64,000 bases of DNA from Siphonodentalium dalli (taxonomy: Eukaryota > Mollusca > Scaphopoda > Gadilida > Siphonodentaliidae). Shown piece by piece: positions 1 through 64,000 of this stretch; the first letter of the stretch is position 1, and each line of letters starts with the position of its first letter. The stretch covers positions 1,922,001 through 1,986,000 of the forward strand of contig CP136064.1 in NCBI GenBank assembly GCA_032622095.1. The letters are read 5' to 3'. The notes beneath the pieces are model-generated. The model was not told the DNA's origin. It worked only from the letters and a program-made list of their open reading frames with translations, and did not search any database. A program made the translations under genes and the position numbers.

Positions 1-72
1 TGTATCTCAACTTAAAGGGACATAACTAACACAGTCACCAACTTTAAGGGGTATCTGCTATAGACTGGTTAC
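1..72 (+). repeat. Partial monomer at left edge
   Basis: These bases are the last 72 positions (158-229) of a monomer cut by the window edge. The unit ends with the CATAACTAACACAG variant of its terminal segment, which elsewhere follows monomers carrying GACTGCAG and TATATA. The array therefore continues to the left of the window. Confidence 0.95.
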
Positions 73-560
73 ATGGTGGAGTACGGTTGGATATTTTCAA
101 TTTGGCGCATGTTTTTCCATACCGCGCCATGTCAAATCTGGCCATATCCGAATCGGGTTGTCATTTACAATGACTGCAGAAAATATATATCGTCATGGTG
201 GAATGCAAATGTATGTTTAAAGGAACAGATGTATCTCAACTTAAAGGGACATAAGTAACACAGTCACCAACTTTAAGGGGTGTCTGATTTAGACTGGTTC
301 CATGGTGGAGTACGGTTGGATATTTTCTATTTGGCGCATGTTTCTCCATACCGCGCCATGTCAAATCTGGCCATATCCGAATCGGGTTGTCATTTACAAT
401 GACTACAGAAAATAAATATCTTCATGTTGGAATGCAAATGTATGTTTAAAGGAACAGATGTATCTCAACTTAAAGGGACATAAGTAACACAGTCACCAAC
501 TTTAAGGGGTATCTGCTATAGACTGGTTCCATGGTGGAGTACGGTTGGATATTTTCAATT

Positions 561-587
561 TGGCGCATGTTTCTCCATACCGCGCCA
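561..587. other. Imperfect dyad (stem-loop potential) in each monomer
   Basis: This is the representative copy of a sequence found in nearly every unit. TGGCGC is followed 15 bases later by its exact complement GCGCCA. Inside these arms ATG and CAT can also pair, leaving a six-base loop and a three-base ACC bulge. The same element sits at monomer positions 31-57 throughout the array. Monomers with the TTTTGCGC variant lose one G-C pair of the outer stem. Dyads of this kind have been discussed as non-B DNA features of satellites at centromeres; any such role here is inference. Confidence 0.6.
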
Positions 588-639
588 TGTCAAATCTGGC
601 CATATCCGAATCGGGTTGTCATTTACAATGACTACAGAA

Positions 640-645
640 AATAAA
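640..645 (+). other. AATAAA hexamer, poly(A)-signal-like, recurrent
   Basis: This is the representative copy. Monomers with the TACAG or TGCAG block followed by AATAAATATC carry a canonical AATAAA at monomer positions 110-115, with a GT-rich stretch (GTTGGAATGCAAATGTATGTTT) split over the next 30 bases. The units with AATATA, AACAAA or AATAGA lack the hexamer. It could end a transcript crossing the array on the + strand, but it lies in an A/T-rich patch and may be chance. Confidence 0.25.
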
Positions 646-1675
646 TATCTTCATGTTGGAATGCAAATGTATGTTTAAAGGAACAGATGTATCTCAACTT
701 AAAGGGACATAAGTAACACAGTCACCAACTTTAAGGGGTGTCTGATATAGACTGGTTCCATGGTGGAGTACGGTTGGATATTTTCTATTCGGCGCATGTT
801 TCTCCATACCGCGCCATGTCAAATCTGGCCATATCCGAATCGGGTTGTCATTTACAATGACTACAGAAAATAAATATCTTCATGTTGGAATGCAAATGTA
901 TGTTTAAAGGAACAGATGTATCTCAACTTAAAGGGACATAAGTAACACAGTCACCAACTTTAAGGGGTGTCTGCTATAGACTGGTTCCATGGTGGAGTAC
1001 GGTTGGATATTTTCAATTTGGCGCATGTTTCCCCATACCGCGCCATGTCAAATCTGGCCATATCCGAATCGGGTTGTCATTTACAATGACTACAGAAAAT
1101 AAATATCTTCATGTTGGAATGCAAATGTATGTTTAAAGGAACAGATGTATCTCAACTTAAAGGGACATAAATAACACAATCACCAACTTTAAGGGGTATC
1201 TGCTATAGACTGGTTCCATGGTGGAGTACTGTTGGATATTTTCAATTTGGCGCATGTTTTTCCATACCGCGCCATGTCAAATCTGGCCATATCCGAATCG
1301 GGTTGTCATTTACAATGACCACAGAAAATAGATATCTTCTTGTTGGAATGCAAATGTATGTTTAAAGGAACAGATGTATCTCAACTTAAAGGGACATAAG
1401 TAACACAGTCACCAACTTTAAGGGGTATCTGATTTAGACTGGTTCCATGGTGGAGTACGGTTGGATATTTTCTATTTGGCGCATGTTTCTCCATACCGCG
1501 CCATGTCAAATCTGGCCATATCCGAATCGGGTTGTCATTTACAATGACTACAGAAAATAAATATCTTCATGTTGGAATGCAAATGTATGTTTAAAGGAAC
1601 AGATGTATCTCAACTTAAAGGGACATAAGTAACACAGTCACCAACTTTAAGGGGTATCTGCTATAGACTGGTTCC

Positions 1676-3735
1676 ATGGTGGAGTACGGTTGGATATTTT
1701 CAATTTGGCGCATGCTTCTCCATACCGCGCCATGTCAAATCTGGCCATATCCGAATCGGGTTGTCATTTACAATGACTGCAGAAAATATATATCTTCATG
1801 TTGGAATGCAAATGTATGTTTAAATGAACAGATGTATCTCAACTTAAAGGGACATAACTAACACAGTCACCAACTTTAAGGGGTATCTGCTATAGACTGG
1901 TTACATGGTGGAGTACGGTTGGATATTTTCAATTTTGCGCATGTTTCTCCATACCGCGCCATGTCAAATCTGGCCATATCCGAATCGGGTTGTCATTTAC
2001 AATGACTGCAGAAAATAAATATCTTCATGTTGGAATGCAAAGGTATGTTTAAAGGAACAGATGTATCTCAACTTAAAGGGACATAAGTAACACAGTCACC
2101 AACTTTAAGGGGTGTCTGATATAGACTGGTTCCATGGTGGAGTACGGTTGGATATTTTCAATTTGGCGCATGTTTCTCCATACCGCGCCATGTCAATTCT
2201 GGCCATATCCGAATCGGGTTGTCATTTACAATGACTACAGAAAATAAATATCTTCATGTTGGAATGCAAATGTATGTTTAAAGGAACAGATGTATCTCAA
2301 CTTAAAGGGACATAAGTAACACAGTCACCAACTTTAAGGGGTATCTGCTATAGACTGGTTCCATGGTGGAGTACGGTTGGATATTTTCAATTTGGCGCAT
2401 GTTTCTCCATACCGCGCCATGTCAAATCTGGCCATATCCGAATCGGGTTGTCATTTACAATGACTGCAGAAAATATATATCTTCATGGTGGAATGCAAAT
2501 GTATGTTTAAAGGAACAGATGTATCTCAACTTAAAGGGACATAACTAACACAGTCACCAACTTTAAGGGGTATCTGCTATAGACTGGTTACATGGTGGAG
2601 TACGGTTGGATATTTTCAATTTGGCGCATGTTTTTCCATACCGCGCCATGTCAAATCTGGCCATATCCGAATCGGGTTGTCATTTACAATGACTGCAGAA
2701 AATATATATCTTCATGGTGGAATGCAAATGTATGTTTAAAGGAACAGATGTATCTCAACTTAAAGGGACATAAGTAACACAGTCACCAACTTTAAGGGGT
2801 GTCTGATATAGACTGGTTCCATGGTGGAGTACGGTTGGATATTTTCTATTTGGCGCATGTTTCTCCATACCGCGCCATGTCAAATCTGGCCATATCCGAA
2901 TCGGGTTGTCATTTACAATGACTACAGAAAATAAATATCTTCATGTTGGAATGCAAATGTATGTTTAAAGGAACAGATGTATCTCAACTTAAAGGGACAT
3001 AAGTAACACAGTCACCAACTTTAAGGGGTATCTGCTATAGACTGGTTCCATGGTGGAGTACGGTTGGATATTTTCAATTTGGCGCATGTTTCTCCATACC
3101 GCGCCATGTCAAATCTGGCCATATCCGAATCGGGTTGTCATTTACAATGACTACAGAAAATAAATATCTTCATGTTGGAATGCAAATGTATGTTTAAAGG
3201 AACAGATGTATCTCAACTTAAAGGGACATAAATAACACAATCACCAACTTTAAGGGGTATCTGCTATAGACTGGTTCCATGGTGGAGTACTGTTGGATAT
3301 TTTCAATTTGGCGCTTGTTTTTCCATACCGCGCCATGTCAAATCAGGCCATATCCGAATCGGGTTGTCATTTACAATGACTACAGAAAATAGATATCTTC
3401 TTGTTGGAATGCAATAGTATGTTTAAAGGAACAGATGTAACTCAACTTAAAGGGATTAAGTAACACATTCACCAACTTTAAGGGGTATCTGATTTAGACT
3501 GGTTCCATGGTGGAGTACGGTTGGATATTTTCAATTTGGCGCATGTTTCTCCATACCGCGCCATGTCAAATCTGGCCATATCCGAATCGGGTTGTCATTT
3601 ACAATGTCTACAGAAAACAAATATCTTCATGTTGGAATGCAAATGTATGTTTAAAGGAACAGATGTATCTCAACTTAAAGGGACATAAGTAACACAGTCA
3701 CCAACTTTAAGGGGTATCTGCTATAGACTGGTTCC
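1676..3735 (+). repeat. 9-mer higher-order unit (2060 bp)
   Basis: Monomers start at 1676 (GCTTCTCC, TATATA, TTAAATGAAC), 1905 (TTTTGCGC, AAAGGTATG), 2134 (TCAATTC), 2363, 2592, 2821 (TCTATTTGG), 3050, 3279 (228 bp) and 3507 (GTCTACAG, AACAAA). The first six are matched by 3736-5109 at a fixed offset of 2060 bases with almost no difference. The last three match 5797, 6026 and 6254 at an offset of 2747. The unit at 3279 has a private AATCAGG (A at 3345). The GCTTCTCC monomer that opens this block opens every unit up to 37833, so I use it as the higher-order boundary; the choice of phase is arbitrary. Confidence 0.85.
3279..3506 (+). repeat. 228-bp monomer class (1-bp deletion), first copy
   Basis: This unit shows a distinct class: TACTGTTGG, GGCGCTTGTTTTTCC, ATAGATA, CTTCTTG, GCAATAGTATG, GTAACTC, and GGGATTAAG in place of GGGACATAAG, which removes one base near 3455, followed by ACATTC. 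Copies start at 3279, 6026, 9000, 10831, 13805, 15636, 18610, 20899, 22730, 28679, 30510, 34858 and 37376. Each is followed by a GTCTACAG/AACAAA monomer. The class is absent to the right of 37604, which helps define the boundary between left and right repertoires. The shared deletion shows all copies descend from one mutated monomer. Confidence 0.85.
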
Positions 3736-6482
3736 ATGGTGGAGTACGGTTGGATATTTTCAATTTGGCGCATGCTTCTCCATACCGCGCCATGTCAAAT
3801 CTGGCCATATCCGAATCGGGTTGTCATTTACAATGACTGCAGAAAATATATATCTTCATGTTGGAATGCAAATGTATGTTTAAATGAACAGATGTATCTC
3901 AACTTAAAGGGACATAACTAACACAGTCACCAACTTTAAGGGGTATCTGCTATAGACTGGTTACATGGTGGAGTACGGTTGGATATTTTCAATTTTGCGC
4001 ATGTTTCTCCATACCGCGCCATGTCAAATCTGGCCATATCCGAATCGGGTTGTCATTTACAATGACTGCAGAAAATAAATATCTTCATGTTGGAATGCAA
4101 AGGTATGTTTAAAGGAACAGATGTATCTCAACTTAAAGGGACATAAGTAACACAGTCACCAACTTTAAGGGGTGTCTGATATAGACTGGTTCCATGGTGG
4201 AGTACGGTTGGATATTTTCAATTTGGCGCATGTTTCTCCATACCGCGCCATGTCAATTCTGGCCATATCCGAATCGGGTTGTCATTTACAATGACTACAG
4301 AAAATAAATATCTTCATGTTGGAATGCAAATGTATGTTTAAAGGAACAGATGTATCTCAACTTAAAGGGACATAAGTAACACAGTCACCAACTTTAAGGG
4401 GTATCTGCTATAGACTGGTTCCATGGTGGAGTACGGTTGGATATTTTCAATTTGGCGCATGTTTCTCCATACCGCGCCATGTCAAATCTGGCCATATCCG
4501 AATCGGGTTGTCATTTACAATGACTGCAGAAAATATATATCTTCATGGTGGAATGCAAATGTATGTTTAAAGGAACAGATGTATCTCAACTTAAAGGGAC
4601 ATAACTAACACAGTCACCAACTTTAAGGGGTATCTGCTATAGACTGGTTACATGGTGGAGTACGGTTGGATATTTTCAATTTGGCGCATGTTTTTCCATA
4701 CCGCGCCATGTCAAATCTGGCCATATCCGAATCGGGTTGTCATTTACAATGACTGCAGAAAATATATATCTTCATGGTGGAATGCAAATGTATGTTTAAA
4801 GGAACAGATGTATCTCAACTTAAAGGGACATAAGTAACACAGTCACCAACTTTAAGGGGTGTCTGATATAGACTGGTTCCATGGTGGAGTACGGTTGGAT
4901 ATTTTCTATTTGGCGCATGTTTCTCCATACCGCGCCATGTCAAATCTGGCCATATCCGAATCGGGTTGTCATTTACAATGACTACAGAAAATAAATATCT
5001 TCATGTTGGAATGCAAATGTATGTTTAAAGGAACAGATGTATCTCAACTTAAAGGGACATAAGTAACACAGTCACCAACTTTAAGGGGTGTCTGCTATAG
5101 ACTAGTTCCAAGGTGGAGTACGATTGGATATTTTCAATTTGGCGCATGTTTCCCCATACCGCGCCATGTCAAATCTGGCCATATCCGAATCGGGTTGTCA
5201 TTTACAATGACTACAGAAAATAAATATCTTCATGTTGGAATGCAAATGTATGTTTAAAGGAACAGATGTATCTCAACTTAAAGGGACATAAATAACACAA
5301 TCACCAACTTTAAGGGGTATCTGCTATAGACTGGTTCCATGGTGGAGTACGGTTGGATATTTTCAATTTGGCGCATGTTTTTCCATACCGCGCCATGTCA
5401 AATCTGGCCATATCCGAATCGGGTTGTCATTTACAATGACTACAGAAAATAGATATCTTCTTGTTGGAATGCAAATGTATGTTTAAAGGAACAGATGTAT
5501 CTCAACTTAAAGGGACATAAGTAACACAGTCACCAACTTTAAGGGGTATCTGATTTAGACTGGTTCCATGGTGGAGTACGGTTGGATATTTTCAATTTGG
5601 CGCATGTTTCTCCATACCGCGCCATGTCAAATCTGGCCATATCCGAATCGGGTTGTCATTTACAATGTCTACAGAAAACAAATATCTTCATGTTGGAATG
5701 CAAATGTATGTTTAAAGGAACAGATGTATCTCAACTTAAAGGGACATAAGTAACACAGTCACCAACTTTAAGGGGTATCTGCTATAGACTGGTTCCATAG
5801 TGGAGTACGGTTGGATATTTTCAATTTGGCGCATGTTTCTCCATACCGCGCCATGTCAAATCTGGCCATATCCGAATCGGGTTGTCATTTACAATGACTA
5901 CAGAAAATAAATATCTTCATGTTGGAATGCAAATGTATGTTTAAAGGAACAGATGTATCTCAACTTAAAGGGACATAAATAACACAATCACCAACTTTAA
6001 GGGGTATCTGCTATAGACTGGTTCCATGGTGGAGTACTGTTGGATATTTTCAATTTGGCGCTTGTTTTTCCATACCGCGCCATGTCAAATCTGGCCATAT
6101 CCGAATCGGGTTGTCATTTACAATGACTACAGAAAATAGATATCTTCTTGTTGGAATGCAATAGTATGTTTAAAGGAACAGATGTAACTCAACTTAAAGG
6201 GATTAAGTAACACATTCACCAACTTTAAGGGGTATCTGATTTAGACTGGTTCCATGGTGGAGTACGGTTGGATATTTTCAATTTGGCGCATGTTTCTCCA
6301 TACCGCGCCATGTCAAATCTGGCCATATCCGAATCGGGTTGTCATTTACAATGTCTACAGAAAACAAATATCTTCATGTTGGAATGCAAATGTATGTTTA
6401 AAGGAACAGATGTATCTCAACTTAAAGGGACATAAGTAACACAGTCACCAACTTTAAGGGGTATCTGCTATAGACTGGTTCC
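3736..6482 (+). repeat. 12-mer higher-order unit (2747 bp), 9-mer plus three
   Basis: Monomers start at 3736, 3965, 4194, 4423, 4652, 4881, 5110, 5339, 5568, 5797, 6026 (228 bp) and 6254. The first six equal those of the preceding 9-mer and the last three match its last three. The units at 5110 (CCAAGGTGG, TACGATTGG, TTTCCCC), 5339 (ATAGATA) and 5568 (GTCTACAG) are the extra material, exactly 687 bases. The unit at 5110 has a private ACTAGTTCC. The last eight monomers from 4652 recur as the last eight of each 21-mer to the right, so this block looks like an intermediate between the 9-mer and the 21-mer. Confidence 0.85.
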
Positions 6483-9400
6483 ATGGTGGAGTACGGTTGG
6501 ATATTTTCAATTTGGCGCATGCTTCTCCATACCGCGCCATGTCAAATCTGGCCATATCCGAATCGGGTTGTCATTTACAATGACTGCAGAAAATATATAT
6601 CTTCATGTTGGAATGCAAATGTATGTTTAAATGAACAGATGTATCTCAACTTAAAGGGACATAACTAACACAGTCACCAACTTTAAGGGGTATCTGCTAT
6701 AGACTGGTTACATGGTGGAGTACGGTTGGATATTTTCAATTTTGCGCATGTTTCTCCATACCGCGCCATGTCAAATCTGGCCATATCCGAATCGGGTTGT
6801 CATTTACAATGACTGCAGAAAATAAATATCTTCATGTTGGAATGCAAAGGTATGTTTAAAGGAACAGATGTATCTCAACTTAAAGGGACATAAGTAACAC
6901 AGTCACCAACTTTAAGGGGTGTCTGATATAGACTGGTTCCATGGTGGAGTACGGTTGGATATTTTCAATTTGGCGCATGTTTCTCCATACCGCGCCATGT
7001 CAATTCTGGCCATATCCGAATCGGGTTGTCATTTACAATGACTACAGAAAATAAATATCTTCATGTTGGAATGCAAATGTATGTTTAAAGGAACAGATGT
7101 ATCTCAACTTAAAGGGACATAAGTAACACAGTCACCAACTTTAAGGGGTGTCTGCTATAGACTGGTTCCATGGTGGAGTACGGTTGGATATTTTCAATTT
7201 GGCGCATGTTTCTCCATACCGCGCCATGTCAAATCTGGCCATATCCGAATCGGGTTGTCATTTACAATGACTACAGAAAATAAATATCTTCATGTTGGAA
7301 TGCAAATGTATGTTTAAAGGAACAGATGTATCTCAACTTAAAGGGACATAAATAACACAATCACCAACTTTAAGGGGTATCTGCTATAGACTGGTTCCAT
7401 GGTGGAGTACTGTTGGATATTTTCAATTTGGCGCATGTTTTTCCATACCGCGCCATGTCAAATCTGGCCATATCCGAATCGAGTTGTCATTTACAATGAC
7501 TACAGAAAATAGATATCTTCTTGTTGGAATGCAAAAGTATGTTTAAAGGAACAGATGTAACTCAACTTAAAGGGACATAAGTAACACAGTCACCAACTTT
7601 AAGGGGTATCTGATTTAGACTGGTTCCATGGTGGAGTACGGTTGGATATTTTCAATTTGGCGCATGTTTCTCCATACCGCGCCATGTCAAATCTGGCCAT
7701 ATCCGAATCGGGTTGTCATTTACAATGTCTACAGAAAACAAATATCTTCATGTTGGAATGCAAATGTATGTTTAAAGGAACAGATGTATCTCAACTTAAA
7801 GGAACATAAGTAACAGTCACCAACTTTAAGGGGTATCTGCTATAGACTGGTTCCATGGTGGAGTACTGTTGGATATTTTCAATTTGGCGCATGTTTCTCC
7901 ATACCGCGCCATGTCAAATCTGGCCATATCCGAATCGGGTTGTCATTTACAATGACTGCAGAAAATATATATCTTCATGTTGGAATGCAAATGTATGTTT
8001 AAAGGAACAGATGTATCTCAACTTAAAGGGACATAACTAACACAGTCACCAACTTTAAGGGGTATCTGCTATAGACTGGTTACATGGTGGAGTACAGTTG
8101 GATATTTTCAATTTTGCGCATGTTTCTCCATACCGCGCCATGTCAAATCTGGCCATATCCGAATCGGGTTGTCATTTACAATGACTGCAGAAAATAAATA
8201 TCTTCATGTTGGAATGCAAAGGTAAGTTTAAAGGAACAGATGTATCTCAACTTAAAGGGACATAAGTAACACAGTCACCAACTTTAAGGGGTATCTGCTA
8301 TAGACTGGTTACATGGTGGAGTACGGTTGGATATTTTTAATTTTGCGCATGTTTCTCCATACCGCGCCATGTCAAATCTGGCCATAACCGAATCGGGTTG
8401 TCATTTACAATGACTACAGAAAATAAATATCTTCATGTTGGAATGCAAATGTATGTTTAAAGGAACAGATGTATCTCAACTTAAAGGGACATAAGTAACA
8501 CAGTCACCAACTTTAAGGGGTGTCTGATATAGACTGGTTCCATGGTGGAGTACGGTTGGATATTTTCAATTTGGCGCATGTTTTTCCATACCGCGCCATG
8601 TCAAATCTGGCCATATCCGAATCGGGTTGTCATTTACAATGACTGCAGAAAATATATATCTTCATGGTGGAATGCAAATGTATGTTTAAAGGAACAGATG
8701 TATCTCAACTTAAAGGGACATAAGTAACACAGTCACCAACTTTAAGGGGTGTCTGATATAGACTGGTTCCATGGTGGAGTACGGTTGGATATTTTCTATT
8801 TGGCGCATGTTTCTCCATACCGCGCCATGTCAAATCTGGCCATATCCGAATCGGGTTGTCATTTACAATGACTACAGAAAATAAATATCTTCATGTTGGA
8901 ATGCAAATGTATGTTTAAAGGAACAGATGTATCTCAACTTAAAGGGACATAAATAACACAATCACCAACTTTAAGGGGTATCTGCTATAGACTGGTTCCA
9001 TGGTGGAGTACTGTTGGATATTTTCAATTTGGCGCTTGTTTTTCCATACCGCGCCATGTCAAATCTGGCCATATCCGAATCGGGTTGTCATTTACAATGA
9101 CTACAGAAAATAGATATCTTCTTGTTGGAATGCAATAGTATGTTTAAAGGAACAGATGTAACTCAACTTAAAGGGATTAAGTAACACATTCACCAACTTT
9201 AAGGGGTATCTGATTTAGACTGGTTCCATGGTGGAGTACGGTTGGATATTTTCAATTTGGCGCATGTTTCTCCATACCGCGCCATGTCAAATCTGGCCAT
9301 ATCCGAATCGGGTTGTCATTTACAATGTCTACAGAAAACAAATATCTTCATGTTGGAATGCAAATGTATGTTTAAAGGAACAGATGTATCTCAACTTAAA

Positions 9401-11287
9401 GGGACATAAGTAACACAGTCACCAACTTTAAGGGGTGTCTGATATAGACTGGTTCCATGGTGGAGTACGGTTGGATATTTTCAATTTGGCGCATGTTTTT
9501 CCATACCGCGCCATGTCAAATCTGGCCATATCCGAATCGGGTTGTCATTTACAATGACTGCAGAAAATATATATCTTCATGGTGGAATGCAAATGTATGT
9601 TTAAAGGAACAGATGTATCTCAACTTAAAGGGACATAAGTAACACAGTCACCAACTTTAAGGGGTGTCTGATATAGACTGGTTCCATGGTGGAGTACGGT
9701 TGGATATTTTCTATTTGGCGCATGTTTCTCCATACCGCGCCATGTCAAATCTGGCCATATCCGAATCGGGTTGTCATTTACAATGACTACAGAAAATAAA
9801 TATCTTCATGTTGGAATGCAAATGTATGTTTAAAGGAACAGATGTATCTCAACTTAAAGGGACATAAGTAACACAGTCACCAACTTTAAGGGGTGTCTGC
9901 TATAGACTGGTTCCAAGGTGGAGTACGATTGGATATTTTCAATTTGGCGCATGTTTCCCCATACCGCGCCATGTCAAATCTGGCCATATCCGAATCGGGT
10001 TGTCATTTACAATGACTACAGAAAATAAATATCTTCATGTTGGAATGCAAATGTATGTTTAAAGGAACAGATGTATCTCAACTTAAAGGGACATAAATAA
10101 CACAATCACCAACTTTAAGGGGTATCTGCTATAGACTGGTTCCATGGTGGAGTACGGTTGGATATTTTCAATTTGGCGCATGTTTTTCCATACCGCGCCA
10201 TGTCAAATCTGGCCATATCCGAATCGGGTTGTCATTTACAATGACTACAGAAAATAGATATCTTCTTGTTGGAATGCAAATGTATGTTTAAAGGAACAGA
10301 TGTATCTCAACTTAAAGGGACATAAGTAACACAGTCACCAACTTTAAGGGGTATCTGATTTAGACTGGTTCCATGGTGGAGTACGGTTGGATATTTTCAA
10401 TTTGGCGCATGTTTCTCCATACCGCGCCATGTCAAATCTGGCCATATCCGAATCGGGTTGTCATTTACAATGTCTACAGAAAACAAATATCTTCATGTTG
10501 GAATGCAAATGTATGTTTAAAGGAACAGATGTATCTCAACTTAAAGGGACATAAGTAACACAGTCACCAACTTTAAGGGGTATCTGCTATAGACTGGTTC
10601 CATAGTGGAGTACGGTTGGATATTTTCAATTTGGCGCATGTTTCTCCATACCGCGCCATGTCAAATCTGGCCATATCCGAATCGGGTTGTCATTTACAAT
10701 GACTACAGAAAATAAATATCTTCATGTTGGAATGCAAATGTATGTTTAAAGGAACAGATGTATCTCAACTTAAAGGGACATAAATAACACAATCACCAAC
10801 TTTAAGGGGTATCTGCTATAGACTGGTTCCATGGTGGAGTACTGTTGGATATTTTCAATTTGGCGCTTGTTTTTCCATACCGCGCCATGTCAAATCTGGC
10901 CATATCCGAATCGGGTTGTCATTTACAATGACTACAGAAAATAGATATCTTCTTGTTGGAATGCAATAGTATGTTTAAAGGAACAGATGTAACTCAACTT
11001 AAAGGGATTAAGTAACACATTCACCAACTTTAAGGGGTATCTGATTTAGACTGGTTCCATGGTGGAGTACGGTTGGATATTTTCAATTTGGCGCATGTTT
11101 CTCCATACCGCGCCATGTCAAATCTGGCCATATCCGAATCGGGTTGTCATTTACAATGTCTACAGAAAACAAATATCTTCATGTTGGAATGCAAATGTAT
11201 GTTTAAAGGAACAGATGTATCTCAACTTAAAGGGACATAAGTAACACAGTCACCAACTTTAAGGGGTATCTGCTATAGACTGGTTCC
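6483..11287 (+). repeat. 21-mer higher-order unit, copy A (4805 bp)
   Basis: Monomers start at 6483, 6712, 6941, 7170, 7399, 7628 (227 bp), 7855, 8084, 8313, 8542, 8771, 9000 (228), 9228, 9457, 9686, 9915, 10144, 10373, 10602, 10831 (228) and 11059. The next copy follows at an exact offset of 4805 and I found no difference in the lines I compared. Characteristic members are the CGAGTTG/AAAAGTATG unit at 7399, the TACTGTTGG/TATATA unit at 7855, the AAAGGTAAG unit at 8084 and the TTTTTAATTTTGCGC/CATAACC unit at 8313. The final eight units repeat the end of the 12-mer, so an older duplication is nested inside. Confidence 0.92.
7628..7854 (+). repeat. 227-bp monomer class (2-bp deletion), first copy
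   Basis: This unit belongs to the GTCTACAG/AACAAA class and ends with GGAACATAAGTAACAGTC, where other monomers have AACACAGTC, so CA is missing near 7814. Copies of this 227-bp form start at 7628, 12433, 17238, 24332, 26620, 32570, 39436 and 44243, always just after a CGAGTTG/AAAAGTATG/GTAACTC unit. From 48134 onward the corresponding monomers keep GGAACATAAG but have the full AACACAG, which dates the CA loss after the GGGAC to GGAAC change or reflects conversion. Confidence 0.85.
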
Positions 11288-46301: not shown

Positions 46302-46530
46302 ATGGTGGAGTACTGTTGGATATTTTCAATTTGGCGCATGTTTTTCCATACCGCGCCATGTCAAATCTGGCCATATCCGAATCGGGTTGTCATTTACAAT
46401 GACTGCAGAAAATATATATCTTCATGGTGGAATGCAAATGTATGTTTAAAGGAACAGATGTATCTCAACTTAAAGGGACATAAGTAACACAGTCACCAAC
46501 TTTAAGGGGTGTCTGATATAGACTGGTTCC
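46302..46530 (+). repeat. Chimeric monomer in unit H (second)
   Basis: The unit starts like the GACCACAG class, with TACTGTTGG and GTTTTTCC, but continues with GACTGCAG, TATATA and CATGGTGG as in the type at 40808. It stands where an offset jump between blocks G and H occurs, which fits a recombination junction inside the monomer. Confidence 0.7.
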
Positions 46531-47217
46531 ATGGTGGAGTACGGTTGGATATTTTCTATTTGGCGCATGTTTCTCCATACCGCGCCATGTCAAATCTGGC
46601 CATATCCGAATCGGGTTGTCATTTACAATGACTACAGAAAATAAATATCTTCATGTTGGAATGCAAATGTATGTTTAAAGGAACAGATGTATCTCAACTT
46701 AAAGGGACATAAGTAACACAGTCACCAACTTTAAGGGGTGTCTGCTATAGACTGGTTCCATAGTGGAGTACAGTTGGATATTTTCAATTTGGCGCATGTT
46801 TCCCCATACCGCGCCATGTCAAATCTGGCCATATCCGAATCGGGTTGTCATTTACAATGACTACAGAAAATAAATATCTTCATGTTGGAATGCAAATGTA
46901 TGTTTAAAGGAACAGATGTATCTCAACTTAAAGGGACATAAATAACACAATCACCAACTTTAAGGGGTATCTGCTATAGACTGGTTCCATGGTGGAGTAC
47001 TGTTGGATATTTTCAATTTGGCGCATGTTTTTCCATACCGCGCCATGTCAAATCTGGCCATATCCGAATCGGGTTGTCATTTACAATGACCACAGAAAAT
47101 AGATATCTTCTTGTTGGAATGCAAATGTATGTTTAAAGGAACAGATGTATCTCAACTTAAAGGGACATAAATAACACAATCACCAACTTTAAGGGGTATC
47201 TGCTATAGACTGGTTCC

Positions 47218-52254: not shown

Positions 52255-55200
52255 ATGGTGGAGTACGGTTGGATATTTTCAATTTGGCGCATGTTTCTCC
52301 ATACCGCGCCATGTCAAATCTGGCCATATCCGAATCGGGTTGTCATTTACAATGACTGCAGAAAATATATATCTTCATGTTGGAATGCAAATGTATGTTT
52401 AAAGGAACAGATGTATCTCAACTTAAAGGGACATAACTAACACAGTCACCAACTTTAAGGGGTATCTGCTATAGACTGGTTACATGGTGGAGTACAGTTG
52501 GATATTTTCAATTTTGCGCATGTTTCTCCATACCGCGCCATGTCAAATCTGGCCATATCCGAATCGGGTTGTCATTTACAATGACTGCAGAAAATAAATA
52601 TCTTCATGTTGGAATGCAAAGGTATGTTTAAAGGAACAGATGTATCTCAACTTAAAGGGACATAAGTAACACAGTCACCAACTTTAAGGGGTATCTGCTA
52701 TAGACTGGTTACATGGTGGAGTACGGTTGGATATTTTCAATTTTGCGCATGTTTCTCCATACCGCGCCATGTCAAATCTGGCCATAACCGAATCGGGTTG
52801 TCATTTACAATGACTACAGAAAATGAATATCTTCATGTTGGAATGCAAATGTATGTTTAAAGGAACAGATGTATCTCAACTTAAAGGGTCATAAATAACA
52901 CAATCACCAACTTTAAGGGGTATCTGCTATAGACTGGTTCCATGATGAAGTACTGTTGGATATTTTAAATTTGGCGCATGTTTTTCCATACCGCGCCATG
53001 TCAAATCTGGCCATATCCGAATCGAGTTGTCATTTACAATGACTACAGAAAATAGATATCTTCTTGTTGGAATGCAAAAGTATGTTTAAAGGAACAGATG
53101 TAACTCAACTTAAAGGGACATAAGTAACACAGTCACCAACTTTAAGGGGTATCTGATTTAGACTGGTTCCATGGTGGAGTACGGTTGGATATTTTCAATT
53201 TGGCGCATGTTTCTCCATACCGCGCCATGTCAAATCTGGCCATATCCGAATCGGGTTGTCATTTACAATGTCTACAGAAAACAAATATCTTCATGTTGGA
53301 ATGCAAATGTATGTTTAAAGGAACAGATGTATCTCAACTTAAAGGAACATAAGTAACACAGTCACCAACTTTAAGGGGTATCTGCTATAGACTGGTTCCA
53401 TGGTGGAGTACGGTTGGATATTTTCAATTTGGCGCATGTTTCTCCATACCGCGCCATGTCAAATCTGGCCATATCCGAATCGGGTTGTCATTTACAATGA
53501 CTGCAGAAAATATATATCTTCATGTTGGAATGCAAATGTATGTTTAAAGGAACAGATGTATCTCAACTTAAAGGGACATAAGTAACACATTCACCAACTT
53601 TAAGGGGTATCTGCTATAGACTGGTTACATGGTGGAGTACGGTTGGATATTTTCAATTTTGCGCATGTTTCTCCATACCGCGCCATGTCAAATCTGGCCA
53701 TATCCGAATCGGGTTGTCATTTACAATGACTGCAGAAAATAAATATCTTCATGTTGGAATGCAAAGGTATGTTTAAAGGAACAGATGTATCTCAACTTAA
53801 AGGGACATAAGTAACACATTCACCAACTTTAAGGGGTATCTGCTATAGACTGGTTACATGGTGGAGTACGGTTGGATATTTTCAATTTTGCGCATGTTTC
53901 TCCATACCGCGCCATGTCAAATCTGGCCATAACCGAATCGGGTTGTCATTTACAATGACTGCAGAAAATAAATATCTTCATGTTGGAATGCAAAGGTATG
54001 TTTAAAGGAACAGACGTATCTCAACTTAAAGGGACATAAGTAACACAGTCACCAACTTTAAGGGGTATCTGCTATAGACTGGTTACATGGTGGAGTACTG
54101 TTGGATATTTTCAATTTTGCGCATGTTTCTCCATACCGCGCCATGTCAAATCTGGCCATATCCGAATCGGGTTGTCATTTACAATGACTGCAGAAAATAA
54201 ATATCTTCATGTTGGAATGCAAATGTATGTTTAAAGGAACAGTTGTATCTCAACTTAAAGGGACATAAGTAACACAGTCACCAACTTTAAGGGGTGTCTG
54301 ATATAGACTGGTTCCATGGTGGAGTACGGTTGGATATTTTCTATTTGGCGCATGTTTCTCCATACCGCGCCATGTCAATTCTGGCCATATCCGAATCGGG
54401 TTGTCATTTACAATGACTACAGAAAATAAATATCTTCATGTTGGAATGCAAATGTATGTTTGAAGGAACAGATGTATCTCAACTTAAAGGGACATAAGTA
54501 ACACAGTCACCAACTTTAAGGGGTATCTGCTATAGACTGGTTCCATGGTGGAGTACGGTTGGATATTTTCAATTTGGCGCATGTTTCTCCATACCGCGCC
54601 ATGTCAAATCTGGCCATATCCGAATCGGGTTGTCATTTACAATGACTGCAGAAAATAAATATCTTCATGTTGGAATGCAAATGTATGTTTAAAGGAACAG
54701 ATGTATCTCAACTTAAAGGGACATAAGTAACACAGTCACCAACTTTAAGGGGTGTCTGATATAGACTGGTTCCATGGTGGAGTACGGTTGGATATTTTCA
54801 ATTTGGCGCATGTTTCTCCATACCGCGCCATGTCAAATCTGGCCATATCCGAATCGGGTTGTCATTTACAATGACGGCAGAAAATATATATCTTCATGGT
54901 GGAATGCAAAAGTATGTTTAAAGGAACAGATGTAACTCAACTTAAAGGGACATAAGTAACACAGTCACCAACTTTAAGGGGTATCTGATTTAGACTGGTT
55001 CCATGGTGGAGTACGGTTGGAATTTTCAATTTGGCGCATGTTTCTCCATACCGCGCCATGTCAAATCTGGCCATATCCGAATCGGGTTGTCATTTACAAT
55101 GTCTACAGAAAACAAATATCTTCATGTTGGAATGCAAATGTATGTTTAAAGGAACAGATGTATCTCAACTTAAAGGAACATAAGTAACACAGTCACCAAC

Positions 55201-55917
55201 TTAAAGAGGTGTCTGATTTAGACTGGTTCCATGGTGGAGTACAGTTGGATATTTTCAATTTGGCGCATGTTTCTCCATACCGCGCCATGTCAAATCTGGC
55301 CATATCCGAATCGGGTTGTCATTTACAATGTCTACAGAAAACAAATATCTTCATGTTGGAATGCAAATGTATGTTTAAAGGAACAGATGTATCTCAACTT
55401 AAAGGGACATAAGTAACACAGTCACCAACTTTAAGGGGTGTCTGATATAGACTGGTTCCATGGTGGAGTACGGTTGGATATTTTCTATTTGGCGCATGTT
55501 TCTCCACACCGCGCCATGTCAATTCTGGCCATATCCGAATCGGGTTGTCATTTACAATGACTACAGAAAATAAATATCTTCATGTTGGAATGCAAATGTA
55601 TGTTTAAAGGAACAGATGTATCTCAACTTAAAGGGACATAAGTAACACAGTCACCAACTTTAAGGGGTATCTGCTATAGACTGGTTCCATGGTGGAGTAC
55701 TGTTGGATATTTTCAATTTGGCGCATGTTTTTCCATACCGCGCCATGTCAAATCTGGCCATATCCGAATCGGGTTGTCATTTACAATGACCACAGAAAAT
55801 AGATATCTTCTTGTTGGAATGCAAATGTATGTTTAAAGGAACAGATGTATCTCAACTTAAAGGGACATAAATAACAGAATCACCAACTTTAAGGGGTATC
55901 TGCTATAGACTGGTTCC
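52255..55917 (+). repeat. 16-mer higher-order unit K (3663 bp)
   Basis: Monomers start at 52255, 52484, 52713, 52942, 53171, 53400, 53629, 53858, 54087, 54316, 54545, 54774, 55003 (228 bp), 55231, 55460 and 55689. The first ten copy unit J at an offset of 2519, including its GATGAAG and GGGTC variants. Five monomers then intervene before the closing GACCACAG unit. The unit at 55003 lost one base (GTTGGAATTTTC near 55020), which shifts the open frame. Private changes include GTTTGAAGG near 54461 and TCTCCACACC near 55506. Confidence 0.88.
54774..55002 (+). repeat. Chimeric GACGGCAG monomer, recurrent
   Basis: This unit carries GACGGCAG, TATATA and CATGGTGG in its middle and then AAAAGTATG and GTAACTC, which elsewhere belong to the CGAGTTG/ATAGATA class. 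It therefore joins two monomer types in the 25 bases between CATGGTGG and AAAAG. Copies occur at 58437 and 62330 in the two 17-mers, so the fusion predates their amplification. Confidence 0.75.
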
Positions 55918-58900
55918 ATGGTGGAGTACGGTTGGATATTTTCAATTTGGCGCATGTTTCTCCATACCGCGCCATGTCAAATCTGGCCATATCCGAATCG
56001 GGTTGTCATTTACAATGACTGCAGAAAATATATATCTTCATGTTGGAATGCAAATGTATGTTTAAAGGAACAGATGTATCTCAACTTAAAGGGACATAAC
56101 TAACACAGTCACCAACTTTAAGGGGTATCTGCTATAGACTGGTTACATGGTGGAGTACAGTTGGATATTTTCAATTTTGCGCATGTTTCTCCATACCGCG
56201 CCATGTCAAATCTGGCCATATCCGAATCGGGTTGTCATTTACAATGACTGCAGAAAATAAATATCTTCATGTTGGAATGCAAAGGTATGTTTAAAGGAAC
56301 AGATGTATCTCAACTTAAAGGGACATAAGTAACACAGTCACCAACTTTAAGGGGTATCTGCTATAGACTGGTTACATGGTGGAGTACGGTTGGATATTTT
56401 CAATTTTGCGCATGTTTCTCCATACCGCGCCATGTCAAATCTGGCCATAACCGAATCGGGTTGTCATTTACAATGACTACAGAAAATGAATATCTTCATG
56501 TTGGAATGCAAATGTATGTTTAAAGGAACAGATGTATCTCAACTTAAAGGGACATAAATAACACAATCACCAACTTTAAGGGGTATCTGCTATAGACTGG
56601 TTCCATGATGGAGTACTGTTGGATATTTTAAATTTGGCGCATGTTTTTCCATACCGCGCCATGTCAAATCTGGCCATATCCGAATCGAGTTGTCATTTAC
56701 AATGACTACAGAAAATAGATATCTTCTTGTTGGAATGCAAAAGTATGTTTAAAGGAACAGATGTAACTCAACTTAAAGGGACATAAGTAACACAGTCACC
56801 AACTTTAAGGGGTATCTGATTTAGACTGGTTCCATGGTGGAGTACGGTTGGATATTTTCAATTTGGCGCATGTTTCTCCATACCGCGCCATGTCAAATCT
56901 GGCCATATCCGAATCGGGTTGTCATCTACAATGTCTACAGAAAACAAATATCTTCATGTTGGAATGCAAATGTATGTTTAAAGGAACAGATGTATCTCAA
57001 CTTAAAGGAACATAAGTAACACAGTCACCAACTTTAAGGGGTATCTGCTATAGACTGGTTCCATGGTGGAGTACGGTTGGATATTTTCAATTTGGCGCAT
57101 GTTTCTCCATACCGCGCCATGTCAAATCTGGCCATATCCGAATCGGGTTGTCATTTACAATGACTGCAGAAAATATATATCTTCATGTTGGAATGCAAAT
57201 GTATGTTTAAAGGAACAGATGTATCTCAACTTAAAGGGACATAAGTAACACATTCACCAACTTTAAGGGGTATCTGCTATAGACTGGTTACATGGTGGAG
57301 TACGGTTGGATATTTTCAATTTTGCGCATGTTTCTCCATACCGCGCCATGTCAAATCTGGCCATATCCGAATCGGGTTGTCATTTACAATGACTGCAGAA
57401 AATAAATATCTTCATGTTGGAATGCAAAGGTATGTTTAAAGGAACAGATGTATCTCAACTTAAAGGGACATAAGTAACACATTCACCAACTTTAAGGGGT
57501 ATCTGCTATAGACTGGTTACATGGTGGAGTACGGTTGGATATTTTCAATTTTGCGCATGTTTCTCCATACCGCGCCATGTCAAATCTGGCCATAACCGAA
57601 TCGGGTTGTCATTTACAATGACTGCAGAAAATAAATATCTTCATGTTGGAATGCAAAGGTATGTTTAAAGGAACAGACGTATCTCAACTTAAAGGGACAT
57701 AAGTAACACAGTCACCAACTTAAAGAGGTGTCTGATTTAGACTGGTTCCATGGTGGAGTACAGTTGGATATTTTCTATTTGGCGCATGTTTCTCCATACC
57801 GCGCCATGTCAATTCTGGCCATATCCGAATCGGGTTGTCATTTACAATGACTACAGAAAATAAATATCTTCATGTTGGAATGCAAATGTATGTTTAAAGG
57901 AACAGTTGTATCTCAACTTAAAGGGACATAAGTAACACAGTCACCAACTTTAAGGGGTGTCTGATATAGACTGGTTCCATGGTGGAGTACGGTTGGATAT
58001 TTTCTATTTGGCGCATGTTTCTCCATACCGCGCCATGTCAATTCTGGCCATATCCGAATCGGGTTGTCATTTACAATGACTACAGAAAATAAATATCTTC
58101 ATGTTGGAATGCAAATGTATGTTTAAAGGAACAGATGTATCTCAACTTAAAGGGACATAAGTAACACAGTCACCAACTTTAAGGGGTATCTGCTATAGAC
58201 TGGTTCCATGGTGGAGTACGGTTGGATATTTTCAATTTGGCGCATGTTTCTCCATACCGCGCCATGTCAAATCTGGCCATATCCGAATTGGGTTGTCATT
58301 TACAATGACTGCAGAAAATAAATATCTTCATGTTGGAATGCAAATGTATGTTTAAAGGAACAGATGTATCTCAACTTAAAGGGACATAAGTAACACAGTC
58401 ACCAACTTTAAGGGGTGTCTGATATAGACTGGTTCCATGGTGGAGTACGGTTGGATATTTTCAATTTGGCGCATGTTTCTCCATACCGCGCCATGTCAAA
58501 TCTGGCCATATCCGAATCGGGTTGTCATTTACAATGACGGCAGAAAATATATATCTTCATGGTGGAATGCAAAAGTATGTTTAAAGGAACAGATGTAACT
58601 CAACTTAAAGGGACATAAGTAACACAGTCACCAACTTTAAGGGGTATCTGATTTAGACTGGTTCCATGGTGGAGTACGGTTGGATATTTTCAATTTGGCG
58701 CATGTTTCTCCATACCGCGCCATGTCAAATCTGGCCATATCCGAATCGGGTTGTCATTTACAATGTCTACAGAAAACAAATATCTTCATGTTGGAATGCA
58801 AATGTATGTTTAAAGGAACAGATGTATCTCAACTTAAAGGAACATAAGTAACACAGTCACCAACTTTAAGGGGTATCTGCTATAGACTGGTTCCATGGTG

Positions 58901-59810
58901 GAGTACGGTTGGATATTTTCAATTTGGCGCATGTTTCTCCATACCGCGCCATGTCAAATCTGGCCATATCCGAATCGGGTTGTCATTTACAATGACTGCA
59001 GAAAATATATATCTTCATGTTGGAATGCAAATGTATGTTTAAAGGAACAGATGTATCTCAACTTAAAGGGACATAACTAACACAGTCACCAACTTTAAGG
59101 GGTATCTGCTATAGACTGGTTACATGGTGGAGTACTGTTGGATATTTTCAATTTTGCGCATGTTTCTCCATACCGCGCCATGTCAAATCTGGCCATATCC
59201 GAATCGGGTTGTCATTTACAATGACTGCAGAAAATATATATCTTCATGGTGGAATGCAAATGTATGTTTAAAGGAACAGATGTATCTCAACTTAAAGGGA
59301 CATAGGTAACACAGTCACCAACTTTAAGGGGTATCTGCTATAGACTGGTTCCATGGTGGAGTACGGTTGGATATTTTCAATTTGGCGCATGTTTCTCCAT
59401 ACCGCGCCATGTCAAATCTGGCCATATCCGAATCGGGTTGTCATTTACAATGACTGCAGAAAATAAATATCTTCATGTTGGAATGCAAATGTATGTTTAA
59501 AGGAACAGATGTATCTCAACTTAAAGGGACATAAGTAACACAGTCACCAACTTTAAGGGGTATCTGCTATAGACTGGTTCCATGGTGGAGTACTGTTGGA
59601 TATTTTCAATTTGGCGCATGTTTTTCCATACCGCGCCATGTCAAATCTGGCCATATCCGAATCGGGTTGTCATTTACAATGACCACAGAAAATAGATATC
59701 TTCTTGTTGGAATGCAAATGTATGTTTAAAGGAACAGATGTATCTCAACTTAAAGGGACATAAATAACAGAATCACCAACTTTAAGGGGTATCTGCTATA
59801 GACTGGTTCC
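55918..59810 (+). repeat. 17-mer higher-order unit L (3893 bp)
   Basis: Monomers start at 55918, 56147, 56376, 56605, 56834, 57063, 57292, 57521, 57750, 57979, 58208, 58437, 58666, 58895, 59124, 59353 and 59582, all exactly 229 bp. The first ten follow unit I in type, including the ACTTAAAGAGG linker and TACAGTTGG unit at 57750. The units at 58208-58894 match 54545-55230 of unit K, and those at 58895-59581 match 45386-46072 of unit H. The block is thus a composite of three older segments. Private changes include TCATCTACAATG near 56926 and GAATTGGG near 58289. Confidence 0.9.
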
Positions 59811-62800
59811 ATGGTGGAGTACGGTTGGATATTTTCAATTTGGCGCATGTTTCTCCATACCGCGCCATGTCAAATCTGGCCATATCCGAATCGGGTTGTC
59901 ATTTACAATGACTGCAGAAAATATATATCTTCATGTTGGAATGCAAATGTATGTTTAAAGGAACAGATGTATCTCAACTTAAAGGGACATAACTAACACA
60001 GTCACCAACTTTAAGGGGTATCTGCTATAGACTGGTTACATGGTGGAGTACAGTTGGATATTTTCAATTTTGCGCATGTTTCTCCATACCGCGCCATGTC
60101 AAATCTGGCCATATCCGAATCGGGTTGTCATTTACAATGACTGCAGAAAATAAATATCTTCATGTTGGAATGCAAAGGTATGTTTAAAGGAACAGATGTA
60201 TCTCAACTTAAAGGGACATAAGTAACACAGTCACCAACTTTAAGGGGTATCTGCTATAGACTGGTTACATGGTGGAGTACGGTTGGATATTTTCAATTTT
60301 GCGCATGTTTCTCCATACCGCGCCATGTCAAATCTGGCCATAACCGAATCGGGTTGTCATTTACAATGACTACAGAAAATGAATATCTTCATGTTGGAAT
60401 GCAAATGTATGTTTAAAGGAACAGATGTATCTCAACTTAAAGGGACATAAATAACACAATCACCAACTTTAAGGGGTATCTGCTATAGACTGGTTCCATG
60501 ATGGAGTACTGTTGGATATTTTAAATTTGGCGCATGTTTTTCCATACCGCGCCATGTCAAATCTGGCCATATCCGAATCGAGTTGTCATTTACAATGACT
60601 ACAGAAAATAGATATCTTCTTGTTGGAATGCAAAAGTATGTTTAAAGGAACAGATGTAACTCAACTTAAAGGGACATAAGTAACACAGTCACCAATTTTA
60701 AGGGGTATCTGATTTAGACTGGTTCCATGGTGGAGTACGGTTGGATATTTTCAATTTGGCGCATGTTTCTCCATACCGCGCCATGTCAAATCTGGCCATA
60801 TCCGAATCGGGTTGTCATTTACAATGTCTACAGAAAACAAATATCTTCATGTTGGAATGCAAATGTATGTTTAAAGGAACAGATGTATCTCAACTTAAAG
60901 GAACATAAGTAACACAGTCACCAACTTTAAGGGGTATCTGCTATAGACTGGTTCCATGGTGGAGTACGGTTGGATATTTTCAATTTGGCGCATGTTTCTC
61001 CATACCGCGCCATGTCAAATCTGGCCATATCCGAATCGGGTTGTCATTTACAATGACTGCAGAAAATATATATCTTCATGTTGGAATGCAAATGTATGTT
61101 TAAAGGAACAGATGTATCTCAACTTAAAGGGACATAAGTAACACATTCACCAACTTTAAGGGGTATCTGCTATAGACTGGTTACATGGTGGAGTACGGTT
61201 GGATATTTTCAATTTTGCGCATGTTTCTCCATACCGCGCCATGTCAAATCTGGCCATATCCGAATCGGGTTGTCATTTACAATGACTGCAGAAAATAAAT
61301 ATCTTCATGTTGGAATGCAAAGGTATGTTTAAAGGAACAGATGTATCTCAACTTAAAGGGACATAAGTAACACATTCACCAACTTTAAGGGGTATCTGCT
61401 ATAGACTGGTTACATGGTGGAGTACGGTTGGATATTTTCAATTTTGCGCATGTTTCTCCATACCGCGCCATGTCAAATCTGGCCATAACCGAATCGGGTT
61501 GTCATTTACAATGACTGCAGAAAATAAATATCTTCATGTTGGAATGCAAAGGTATGTTTAAAGGAACAGACGTATCTCAACTTAAAGGGACATAAGTAAC
61601 ACAGTCACCAACTTAAAGAGGTGTCTGATTTAGACTGGTTCCATGGTGGAGTACAGTTGGATATTTTCTATTTGGCGCATGTTTCTCCATACCGCGCCAT
61701 GTCAATTCTGGCCATATCCGAATCGGGTTGTCATTTACAATGACTACAGAAAATAAATATCTTCATGTTGGAATGCAAATGTATGTTTAAAGGAACAGTT
61801 GTATCTCAACTTAAAGGGACATAAGTAACACAGTCACCAACTTTAAGGGGTGTCTGATATAGACTGGTTCCATGGTGGAGTACGGTTGGATATTTTCTAT
61901 TTGGCGCATGTTTCTCCATACCGCGCCATGTCAATTCTGGCCATATCCGAATCGGGTTGTCATTTACAATGACTACAGAAAATAAATATCTTCATGTTGG
62001 AATGCAAATGTATGTTTAAAGGAACAGATGTATCTCAACTTAAAGGGACATAAGTAACACAGTCACCAACTTTAAGGGGTATCTGCTATAGACTGGTTCC
62101 ATGGTGGAGTACGGTTGGATATTTTCAATTTGGCGCATGTTTCTCCATACCGCGCCATGTCAAATCTGGCCATATCCGAATCGGGTTGTCATTTACAATG
62201 ACTGCAGAAAATAAATATCTTCATGTTGGAATGCAAATGTATGTTTAAAGGAACAGATGTATCTCAACTTAAAGGGACATAAGTAACACAGTCACCAACT
62301 TTAAGGGGTGTCTGATATAGACTGGTTCCATGGTGGAGTACGGTTGGATATTTTCAATTTGGCGCATGTTTCTCCATACCGCGCCATGTCAAATCTGGCC
62401 ATATCCGAATCGGGTTGTCATTTACAATGACGGCAGAAAATATATATCTTCATGGTGGAATGCAAAAGTATGTTTAAAGGAACAGATGTAACTCAACTTA
62501 AAGGGACATAAGTAACACAGTCACCAACTTTAAGGGGTATCTGATTTAGACTGGTTCCATGGTGGAGTACGGTTGGATATTTTCAATTTGGCGCATGTTT
62601 CTCCATACCGCGCCATGTCAAATCTGGCCATATCCGAATCGGGTTGTCATTTACAATGTCTACAGAAAACAAATATCTTCATGTTGGAATGCAAATGTAT
62701 GTTTAAAGGAACAGATGTATCTCAACTTAAAGGAACATAAGTAACACAGTCACCAACTTTAAGGGGTATCTGCTATAGACTGGTTCCATGGTGGAGTACG

Positions 62801-63474
62801 GTTGGATATTTTCAATTTGGCGCATGTTTCTCCATACCGCGCCATGTCAAATCTGGCCATATCCGAATCGGGTTGTCATTTACAATGACTGCAGAAAATA
62901 TATATCTTCATGTTGGAATGCAAATGTATGTTTAAAGGAACAGATGTATCTCAACTTAAAGGGACATAACTAACACAGTCACCAACTTTAAGGGGTATCT
63001 GCTATAGACTGGTTACATGGTGGAGTACTGTTGGATATTTTCAATTTTGCGCATGTTTCTCCATACCGCGCCATGTCAAATCTGGCCATATCCGAATCGG
63101 GTTGTCATTTACAATGACTGCAGAAAATATATATCTTCATGGTGGAATGCAAATGTATGTTTAAAGGAACAGATGTATCTCAACTTAAAGGGACATAGGT
63201 AACACAGTCACCAACTTTAAGGGGTATCTGCTATAGACTGGTTCCATGGTGGAGTACGGTTGGATATTTTCAATTTGGCGCATGTTTCTCCATACCGCGC
63301 CATGTCAAATCTGGCCATATCCGAATCGGGTTGTCATTTACAATGACTGCAGAAAATAAATATCTTCATGTTGGAATGCAAATGTATGTTTAAAGGAACA
63401 GATGTATCTCAACTTAAAGGGACATAAGTAACACAGTCACCAACTTTAAGGGGTGTCTGATATAGACTGGTTCC
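59811..63474 (+). repeat. 17-mer higher-order unit M, last monomer replaced
   Basis: Sixteen monomers start at 59811, 60040, 60269, 60498, 60727, 60956, 61185, 61414, 61643, 61872, 62101, 62330, 62559, 62788, 63017 and 63246, each 3893 bases after its partner in unit L. The seventeenth position should be a GACCACAG unit, but 63475 is a TCAATTC/TACTACAG unit, so the copies part company near 63474. A private ACCAATTTTAAGG lies near 60696. Confidence 0.9.
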
Positions 63475-63932
63475 ATGGTGGAGTACGGTTGGATATTTTC
63501 AATTTGGCGCATGTTTCTCCATACCGCGCCATGTCAATTCTGGCCATATCCGAATCGGGTTGTCATTTACAATGACTACAGAAAATAAATATCTTCATGT
63601 TGGAATGCAAATGTATGTTTAAAGGAACAGATGTATCTCAACTTAAAGGGACATAAGTAACACAGTCACCAACTTTAAGGGGTGTCTGCTATAGACTGGT
63701 TCCATGGTGGAGTACGGTTGGATATTTTCAATTTGGCGCATGTTTCTCCATACCGCGCCATGTCAAATCTGGCCATATCCGAATCGGGTTGTCATTTACA
63801 ATGACTACAGAAAATAAATATCTTCATGTTGGAATGCAAATGTATGTTTAAAGGAACAGATGTATCTCAACTTAAAGGGACATAAATAGCACAATCACCA
63901 ACTTTAAGGGGTATCTGCTATAGACTGGTTCC
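63475..63932 (+). repeat. Two monomers after unit M
   Basis: The units at 63475 (TCAATTC, TACTACAG, AATAAA) and 63704 (TTTCTCC, AATAAA, ending AAATAGCACAATC) do not follow the 17-mer. Their order resembles 6941-7398 of copy A and 43556-44013 of unit H. The AAATAGCAC ending (G at 63889) is otherwise seen at 45113. Confidence 0.8.
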
Positions 63933-64000
63933 ATGGTGGAGTACTGTTGGATATTTTCAATTTGGCGCATGTTTTTCCATACCGCGCCATGTCAAATCTG
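63933..64000 (+). repeat. Partial monomer at right edge
   Basis: The first 68 bases of a TACTGTTGG/GTTTTTCC monomer are cut by the window end, so the array continues to the right. Confidence 0.95.

What the first reader, a model, noticed from the sequence alone, without database searches (positions are those of the whole stretch)
1..64000. Multi-scale higher-order repeat architecture in an unrecognised 229-bp satellite
One monomer fills 64 kb, and ordered monomer variants form higher-order units of 9, 12, 21, 31, 34, 19, 11, 22, 19, 11, 11, 16 and 17 monomers. Few satellite families are described with such long and changing higher-order units. Offsets between matching monomers (2060, 2747, 4805, 2289, 2288, 2518/2519, 3893) can be read directly from the sequence. 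I do not recognise the family.
Basis: partly seen in the sequence, partly recalled or inferred. Interest (0 to 1): 0.7.

Follow-up and report, generated by a model that had tools for sequence, protein, structure and literature searches.

The report
Satellite array with nested block duplications
The whole stretch is one apparently non-coding 229-base sequence repeated about 280 times, and its ordered variants record a series of duplications of long blocks, a pattern of a kind already described for satellite DNA in animals and plants.

Summary
One 229-bp unit fills all 64 kb (279.6 copies), in one orientation, with no foreign insert and no truncated unit among 279 monomers. There are 84 distinct monomers, and their order is far from random: 87 runs of 4 or more matching monomers, the longest 46, against a mean of 0.81 runs and a longest of 6 in 100 shuffles.

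The list of "higher-order units" is only partly right. Only 21 (3.24 copies), 10 (twice), 11 (twice) and 17 repeat over their full length. The 10s were missed.

Best reading: a eukaryotic satellite recording nested, in-register block duplications, youngest around 4.6-25.7 kb. Long, internally repeated higher-order units are published for primates (59-mer; 84-mer as preliminary), and higher-order repeats are widespread. Family, species and chromosomal location could not be determined: no eukaryote DNA collection was available. Ordinary in kind.

The parts
1..64000 (+). Head-to-tail array of a 229-bp satellite monomer, 279 full copies plus a 140-bp part copy cut by the right edge of the window; both ends run out of the window
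   Evidence: no reverse-complement match (0 hits of 30-mers with up to 4 mismatches)
4651..20209 (+). Youngest domain: 21-monomer higher-order unit (labels D E J C H I F G B C K J L G M N B H I N B), 3.24 copies
   Evidence: three copies differ by 1, 1 and 0 of 4809 aligned columns, while monomers within one unit differ by 3.8% on average
17836..22498 (+). Complete 10-monomer tandem duplication; junction within 20125-20209; also the start of a restarted 21-mer phase that runs on to 25739
   Evidence: 0 mismatches
23855..28714 (+). Complete 10-monomer tandem duplication; junction within 26143-26426
   Evidence: 1 mismatch
34333..39610 (+). Complete 11-monomer tandem duplication, more diverged; junction within 36851-37092
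   Evidence: 6 mismatches
49154..54347 (+). Complete 11-monomer tandem duplication; junction within 51672-51828
   Evidence: 1 mismatch
55564..63454 (+). Complete 17-monomer tandem duplication; junction within 59457-59561
   Evidence: 3 mismatches
1559..7149 (+). Part-copies: 1559-3029 recurs at offset 9 in 3620-5089; 3053-4402 recurs at offset 12 in 5800-7149
   Evidence: runs shorter than the offset
29112..40010 (+). Overlapping part-copies at offsets 19 and 30
   Evidence: 10 and 5 mismatches

Best explanation
This is a non-coding satellite DNA array, most likely of a eukaryote, that has grown by repeated tandem duplication of blocks of about 10-21 monomers (2.3-4.8 kb), laid over older, now partly overwritten duplications. 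Shown: one monomer type, one orientation, no insert, monomer register kept throughout, complete tandem duplications of 21, 10, 10, 11, 11 and 17 monomers with different numbers of mismatches. Inferred: the mismatch numbers reflect different ages; the exchanges are homologous, by unequal sister-chromatid exchange or repair that restarts at the wrong monomer, because register is never lost and the five two-copy junctions lie, as a group, in longer identical stretches than random sites do. The array probably sits in heterochromatin (centromeric, pericentromeric or subtelomeric); its location was not testable.
For: Monomer lengths are 229 (256), 228 (15) and 227 (8) of 279; 21 of the 23 shorter ones are the inherited deletion variants I (13) and L (8), so no exchange broke register. 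Six complete tandem duplications with 0-6 mismatches. A greedy collapse of duplications reduces 279 monomers to 147 in 14 steps; the 8 least diverged (mean difference up to 0.57 per monomer) have sizes 21, 21, 10, 11, 10, 17, 11, 21. Exact identity tracts at the five two-copy junctions are 85, 284, 242, 157 and 105 bp, median 157, against a null median of 50 (P 0.003 for the median, 0.016 for the mean; the 21-mer was left out because it has more than two copies). No open reading frame of 100 aa or more under table 11, no tRNA, no Rfam family.
Against: Only five junctions; taken singly only two of the five fall below 0.05 (P 0.21, 0.017, 0.034, 0.065, 0.15), and the null is drawn from the present array, not the ancestral one. 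Duplication/deletion simulations do not reproduce the short/long ratio of identical pairs easily (observed 0.134; 11 of 1925 pairs at offsets 1-7, 296 of 6966 at 8-34). At matched diversity (80 and 72 distinct monomers) medians were 0.67 for sizes 1-34 and 0.52 for 8-34, 0 of 60 runs each at or below the observed value; with 120 and 108 distinct monomers 0 and 1 of 60; with 157 and 148 distinct, 5 and 11 of 60; geometric sizes of mean 6 never (0 of 60 in each of three settings). So the simple model does not account for everything. The eukaryotic origin rests on the type of array and on no match in bacterial, archaeal, viral, phage and plasmid collections (exact short patterns only in two of them), not on a positive match.
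Confidence: 0.85

Rival explanations
1. Blocks were amplified outside the chromosome, as circles copied by rolling-circle replication, and reinserted.
For: Would also give multi-copy blocks such as the 3.24 copies of the 21-mer; the mechanism is named in a review (passage seen).
Against: Five of the six complete events have just over two copies (matching runs of 1.03-1.12 k), more simply a single tandem exchange; no out-of-register insertion site is seen.
Confidence: 0.15
2. Some near-identical blocks, above all the 21-mer copies, are assembly duplications.
For: Copies differ by 0-1 of 4809 columns; such stretches are hard to assemble. No reads were available here.
Against: The different mismatch numbers over different blocks (0, 1, 1, 1, 3, 6) and the deeper order that survives collapse (E-family followed by J-family 16 of 23, maximum 9 in 2000 shuffles) are hard to explain by assembly error alone.
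Confidence: 0.12
3. The array is an expanded repeat core of a mobile element rather than a free satellite.
For: Such cores are described, e.g. 2-6 copies of a 156-bp sequence in the CvA element of scallops (passage).
Against: 280 copies with no other sequence in 64 kb and no open frame of 100 aa or more. The flanks are outside the window, so element ends could not be looked for.
Confidence: 0.08

Closest known systems
Cascading alpha-satellite higher-order repeats of great apes (18/27/45-mers, 58-mer, 59-mer)
   Same: Long units with monomer types recurring within the unit; within-unit divergence far above divergence between unit copies; several unit lengths in one array region
   Different: Monomer 171 bp there and 229 bp here; 8 copies (59-mer) or 67 copies (58-mer) of the unit there, at most 3.24 here; within-unit divergence 22.4% for the 59-mer, 3.8% here
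Plant satellite arrays with higher-order repeats (Populus Palv156 and Palv148; Arabidopsis CEN178 named in the same paper)
   Same: One monomer family organised into higher-order repeats, more alike the closer they lie (Palv156 passages)
Molluscan satellite of similar length (Adamussium colbecki Ac4p3, about 237 bp)
   Same: Tandem array, similar monomer length
   Different: Ac4p3 is made of four repeats of about 60 bp; here only short imperfect internal repeats of 11-25 bp were found. Its published forward primer has 0 matches in the window with up to 3 mismatches; its full sequence was not seen
Astyanax mexicanus SatE_mex (229 bp)
   Same: Same stated length
   Different: Sequence not seen, so identity neither shown nor excluded

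Membership tests
Satellite DNA | Long head-to-tail array of a non-coding unit | tested here: met
   279.6 copies; no ORF of 100 aa or more under table 11; single orientation
Higher-order repeat | Multi-monomer unit whose copies are far more alike than its monomers are | tested here: met
   21-mer: 0-1 differences per 4809 columns between copies, 3.8% between monomers of a unit
   Of the segments found, only 21, 10, 10, 11, 11 and 17 reach one full unit
Cascading higher-order repeat | Same monomer types recur within the unit | tested here: met
   17 distinct sequences among the 21 monomers of the unit; labels such as B and J recur
Alpha satellite | 171-bp monomer with CENP-B boxes in part of the monomers | tested here: not met
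   229 bp; 0 sites within 2 mismatches of the recalled CENP-B box core on either strand; with 3 mismatches 576 sites, fewer than the 766 expected by chance
Centromeric satellite | Bound by the centromeric histone or located at the primary constriction | not testable with these tools
   Needs ChIP, CUT&RUN or FISH
Published 229-bp satellite | Sequence identity with a published monomer | tested here: inconclusive
   12 sequence words from 9 stretches of the monomer (both strands for 3 of them) sought in papers' main text: 0 papers for the first six; 5 papers for the other six, judged from titles only as not about satellites. Supplements and GenBank not searchable

The most novel reading that the evidence does not exclude
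Recent growth of this array proceeds only by exchange of long blocks (at least about 2 kb) that requires roughly 100 bp or more of perfect identity at the crossover, while duplications of one to seven monomers are suppressed; the array would then be a natural record of a length- and mismatch-sensitive recombination process.
Probability: 0.2. Interest if true: 0.45.

Novelty: new member of a known kind. Interest (0 to 1): 0.25.

Why it matters
The array is a readable case of how satellites turn over: duplicated blocks with different numbers of mismatches, and junctions resolved to 85-284 bp. Compared across individuals it could give rates and homology needs of block duplication in another lineage. 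In kind it is ordinary.

Tried and rejected
Identity of the family: exact patterns from the monomer found nothing in viral contigs or genome contigs; a three-monomer query found nothing in phages or plasmids; no Rfam match (first 3000 bases at E up to 1; whole window at gathering scores). No genome is held for the window. I recall that motifs such as TTAAAGGGACATAA look like mollusc repeat DNA; nothing here tests this and I do not rely on it.

Conserved protein-binding segment: not supported. 66 of 229 columns vary and the longest invariant run is 9, shorter than the random mean of 13.6. Stable single-strand folding of one monomer: not exceptional (z -1.49, 18 of 200 shuffles as good). Short hairpins exist but no function is claimed.

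One older short unit behind all the variants: after collapse no offset from 1 to 20 stands out (fraction of shuffles at or below the observed minimum: 0.576). Offset 21 was lower (6.79 against 8.12 overall) but lay outside that test. The five macro-families used were assigned by hand from the diagnostic sites.

Absence of short duplications: adjacent identical monomers 0 of 278; simulations do not settle it. Six older collapse steps have sizes 3, 1, 1, 1, 2 and 2, so short duplications did occur earlier.

Papers: ten searches in all. '229 bp' or '229-bp' with satellite or centromere terms gave 2, 0 and 4 papers; four of the six were opened by passage: three use the figure for something other than a satellite monomer length and one names SatE_mex; PMC2773423 and PMC1794594 were seen only in the listing. 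Searches for higher-order repeats with bivalve, mollusc, CEN180 and insect terms gave 11, 3, 9 and 53 papers (15 of the 53 listed), of which I opened seven by passages; one six-term search gave none.

Full report
What is there. The window is a single head-to-tail array. Tandem Repeats Finder gives one row, 1-64000, period 229, 279.6 copies, 96% matches. Segmentation gives 279 full monomers and a 140-bp part copy cut by the window's edge; lengths are 229 (256), 228 (15) and 227 (8), with no insertions relative to the consensus. Mean pairwise identity of the 279 is 96.4%, minimum 90.4%. No monomer was found in reverse orientation. There is no open reading frame of 100 aa or more under the bacterial table (genes with introns were not tested), no tRNA and no Rfam match. 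GC is 39.0% and CpG observed/expected 0.67.

Order of the variants. The 279 monomers fall into 84 distinct sequences, 41 of them seen once, and into 22 types at a clustering threshold of 3.5 differences. Neighbours are never identical (0 of 278), while 57 of 258 pairs at offset 21 are. Runs of at least four consecutive matching monomers at one offset number 87, the longest 46; 100 shuffles of the monomers give a mean of 0.81, at most 4 and a longest of 6. The base-level count is 39 segments against 0 in each of 20 shuffles. The other (a published satellite with the same monomer and map) could not be tested properly.

Which blocks are real units. A unit of k monomers present at least twice in tandem needs a matching run of k monomers. 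Six of the 39 segments pass: k=21 at 4651-20209 (run 2.24 k), k=10 at 17836-22498, k=10 at 23855-28714, k=11 at 34333-39610, k=11 at 49154-54347 and k=17 at 55564-63454. The other 33 are part-copies, as would be left by duplications later cut or overwritten, or echoes of the same blocks at longer offsets. The 31-monomer offset is 21+10: the stretch from 20125 is a restart of the 21-mer domain, seen at both offsets. The three 21-mer copies differ by 1, 1 and 0 of 4809 aligned columns, while monomers inside one unit differ by 3.8% and comprise 17 distinct sequences. So the unit repeats some of its own monomers, as do the 'cascading' units of the primate papers.

Layers. Collapsing tandem duplications greedily, least diverged first, takes 14 steps from 279 to 147 monomers; the first eight have sizes 21, 21, 10, 11, 10, 17, 11 and 21, the last six 3, 1, 1, 1, 2 and 2. 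What remains still has order: monomers of the E family are followed by one of the J family in 16 of 23 cases (null mean 3.0, maximum 9 of 2000), but there is no single period among offsets 1-20. The greedy order is one possible history, not a proven one.

Mechanism. Register is kept everywhere, which points to exchange guided by homology. At the five two-copy events the junction zones are exact identity tracts of 85, 284, 242, 157 and 105 bp, median 157, against a median of 50 at random sites and offsets outside the recent duplications (P 0.003 for the median, 0.016 for the mean; singly 0.21, 0.017, 0.034, 0.065 and 0.15). This is suggestive with n=5. In simulations of duplication and deletion (60 runs per setting), block sizes 1-34 or 8-34 at matched diversity (80 and 72 distinct monomers) gave too many short-range identical pairs (0 of 60 each at or below the observed ratio of 0.134). 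With 120 and 108 distinct monomers 0 and 1 of 60 reached it, with 157 and 148 (observed: 84) 5 and 11 of 60. Geometric block sizes of mean 6 never did. A preference for long blocks is thus possible but not shown. [quoted passage not shown] that cannot be told apart from unequal exchange in one sequence.

Comparison with what is known. Passages seen, not whole papers: human Y 34-mer and a definition of higher-order repeats (PMC8122249); orangutan 59-mer with 22.4% divergence within and 0.1% between units, and interleaved 18/27/45-mers (PMC11276891); orangutan Y 58-mer and 45-mer, with 84-, 54-, 53-, 51- and 45-mers on other chromosomes as preliminary (PMC12428378); higher-order repeats in 76 of 171 species with Sanger data (PMC4053949); higher-order repeats in centromeric and other arrays of Salicaceae (PMC12046899). 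The architecture is of a known kind. What differs is the monomer, the low copy number of each unit, and that the long published examples seen here are all primate.

Identity. Two paper searches with 12 sequence words from the monomer gave 0 papers and 5 papers whose titles do not concern satellites. Searches for '229 bp' or '229-bp' with satellite or centromere terms gave 2, 0 and 4 papers; among the four opened by passage, only one gives this as a satellite monomer length, SatE_mex of Astyanax mexicanus, whose sequence was not seen. The bivalve satellite Ac4p3 (about 237 bp) is not supported as a match.

Noticed in passing
5105-15404: 10,300 bases match exactly at offset 4805, a stretch that short reads could not resolve; read support should be checked first.
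   Followed up: no
window, all monomers: Variable columns are denser in the first half of the monomer as numbered here (41 in the first five 23-bp bins, 25 in the last five), and no invariant run exceeds 9.
   Followed up: partly
window, all monomers: Type H is followed by I in 13 of 13 cases, K by J in 13 of 13 and T by J in 2 of 2, but E by J in only 9 of 16: a sign of an older linked pair beneath the present units.
   Followed up: partly
window, monomer positions 11, 103 and 160: The consensus holds short inverted repeats: CTTAAAG with a 24-base loop, TGGCGC with a 15-base loop, and GTCATT-TAC-AATGAC.
   Followed up: no
1-458 (two monomers): Imperfect internal repeats inside the monomer, e.g. 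72-96 and 194-218 (72% alike) and a TTAAAGG-containing 22-mer, might be traces of a shorter ancestral unit.
   Followed up: no
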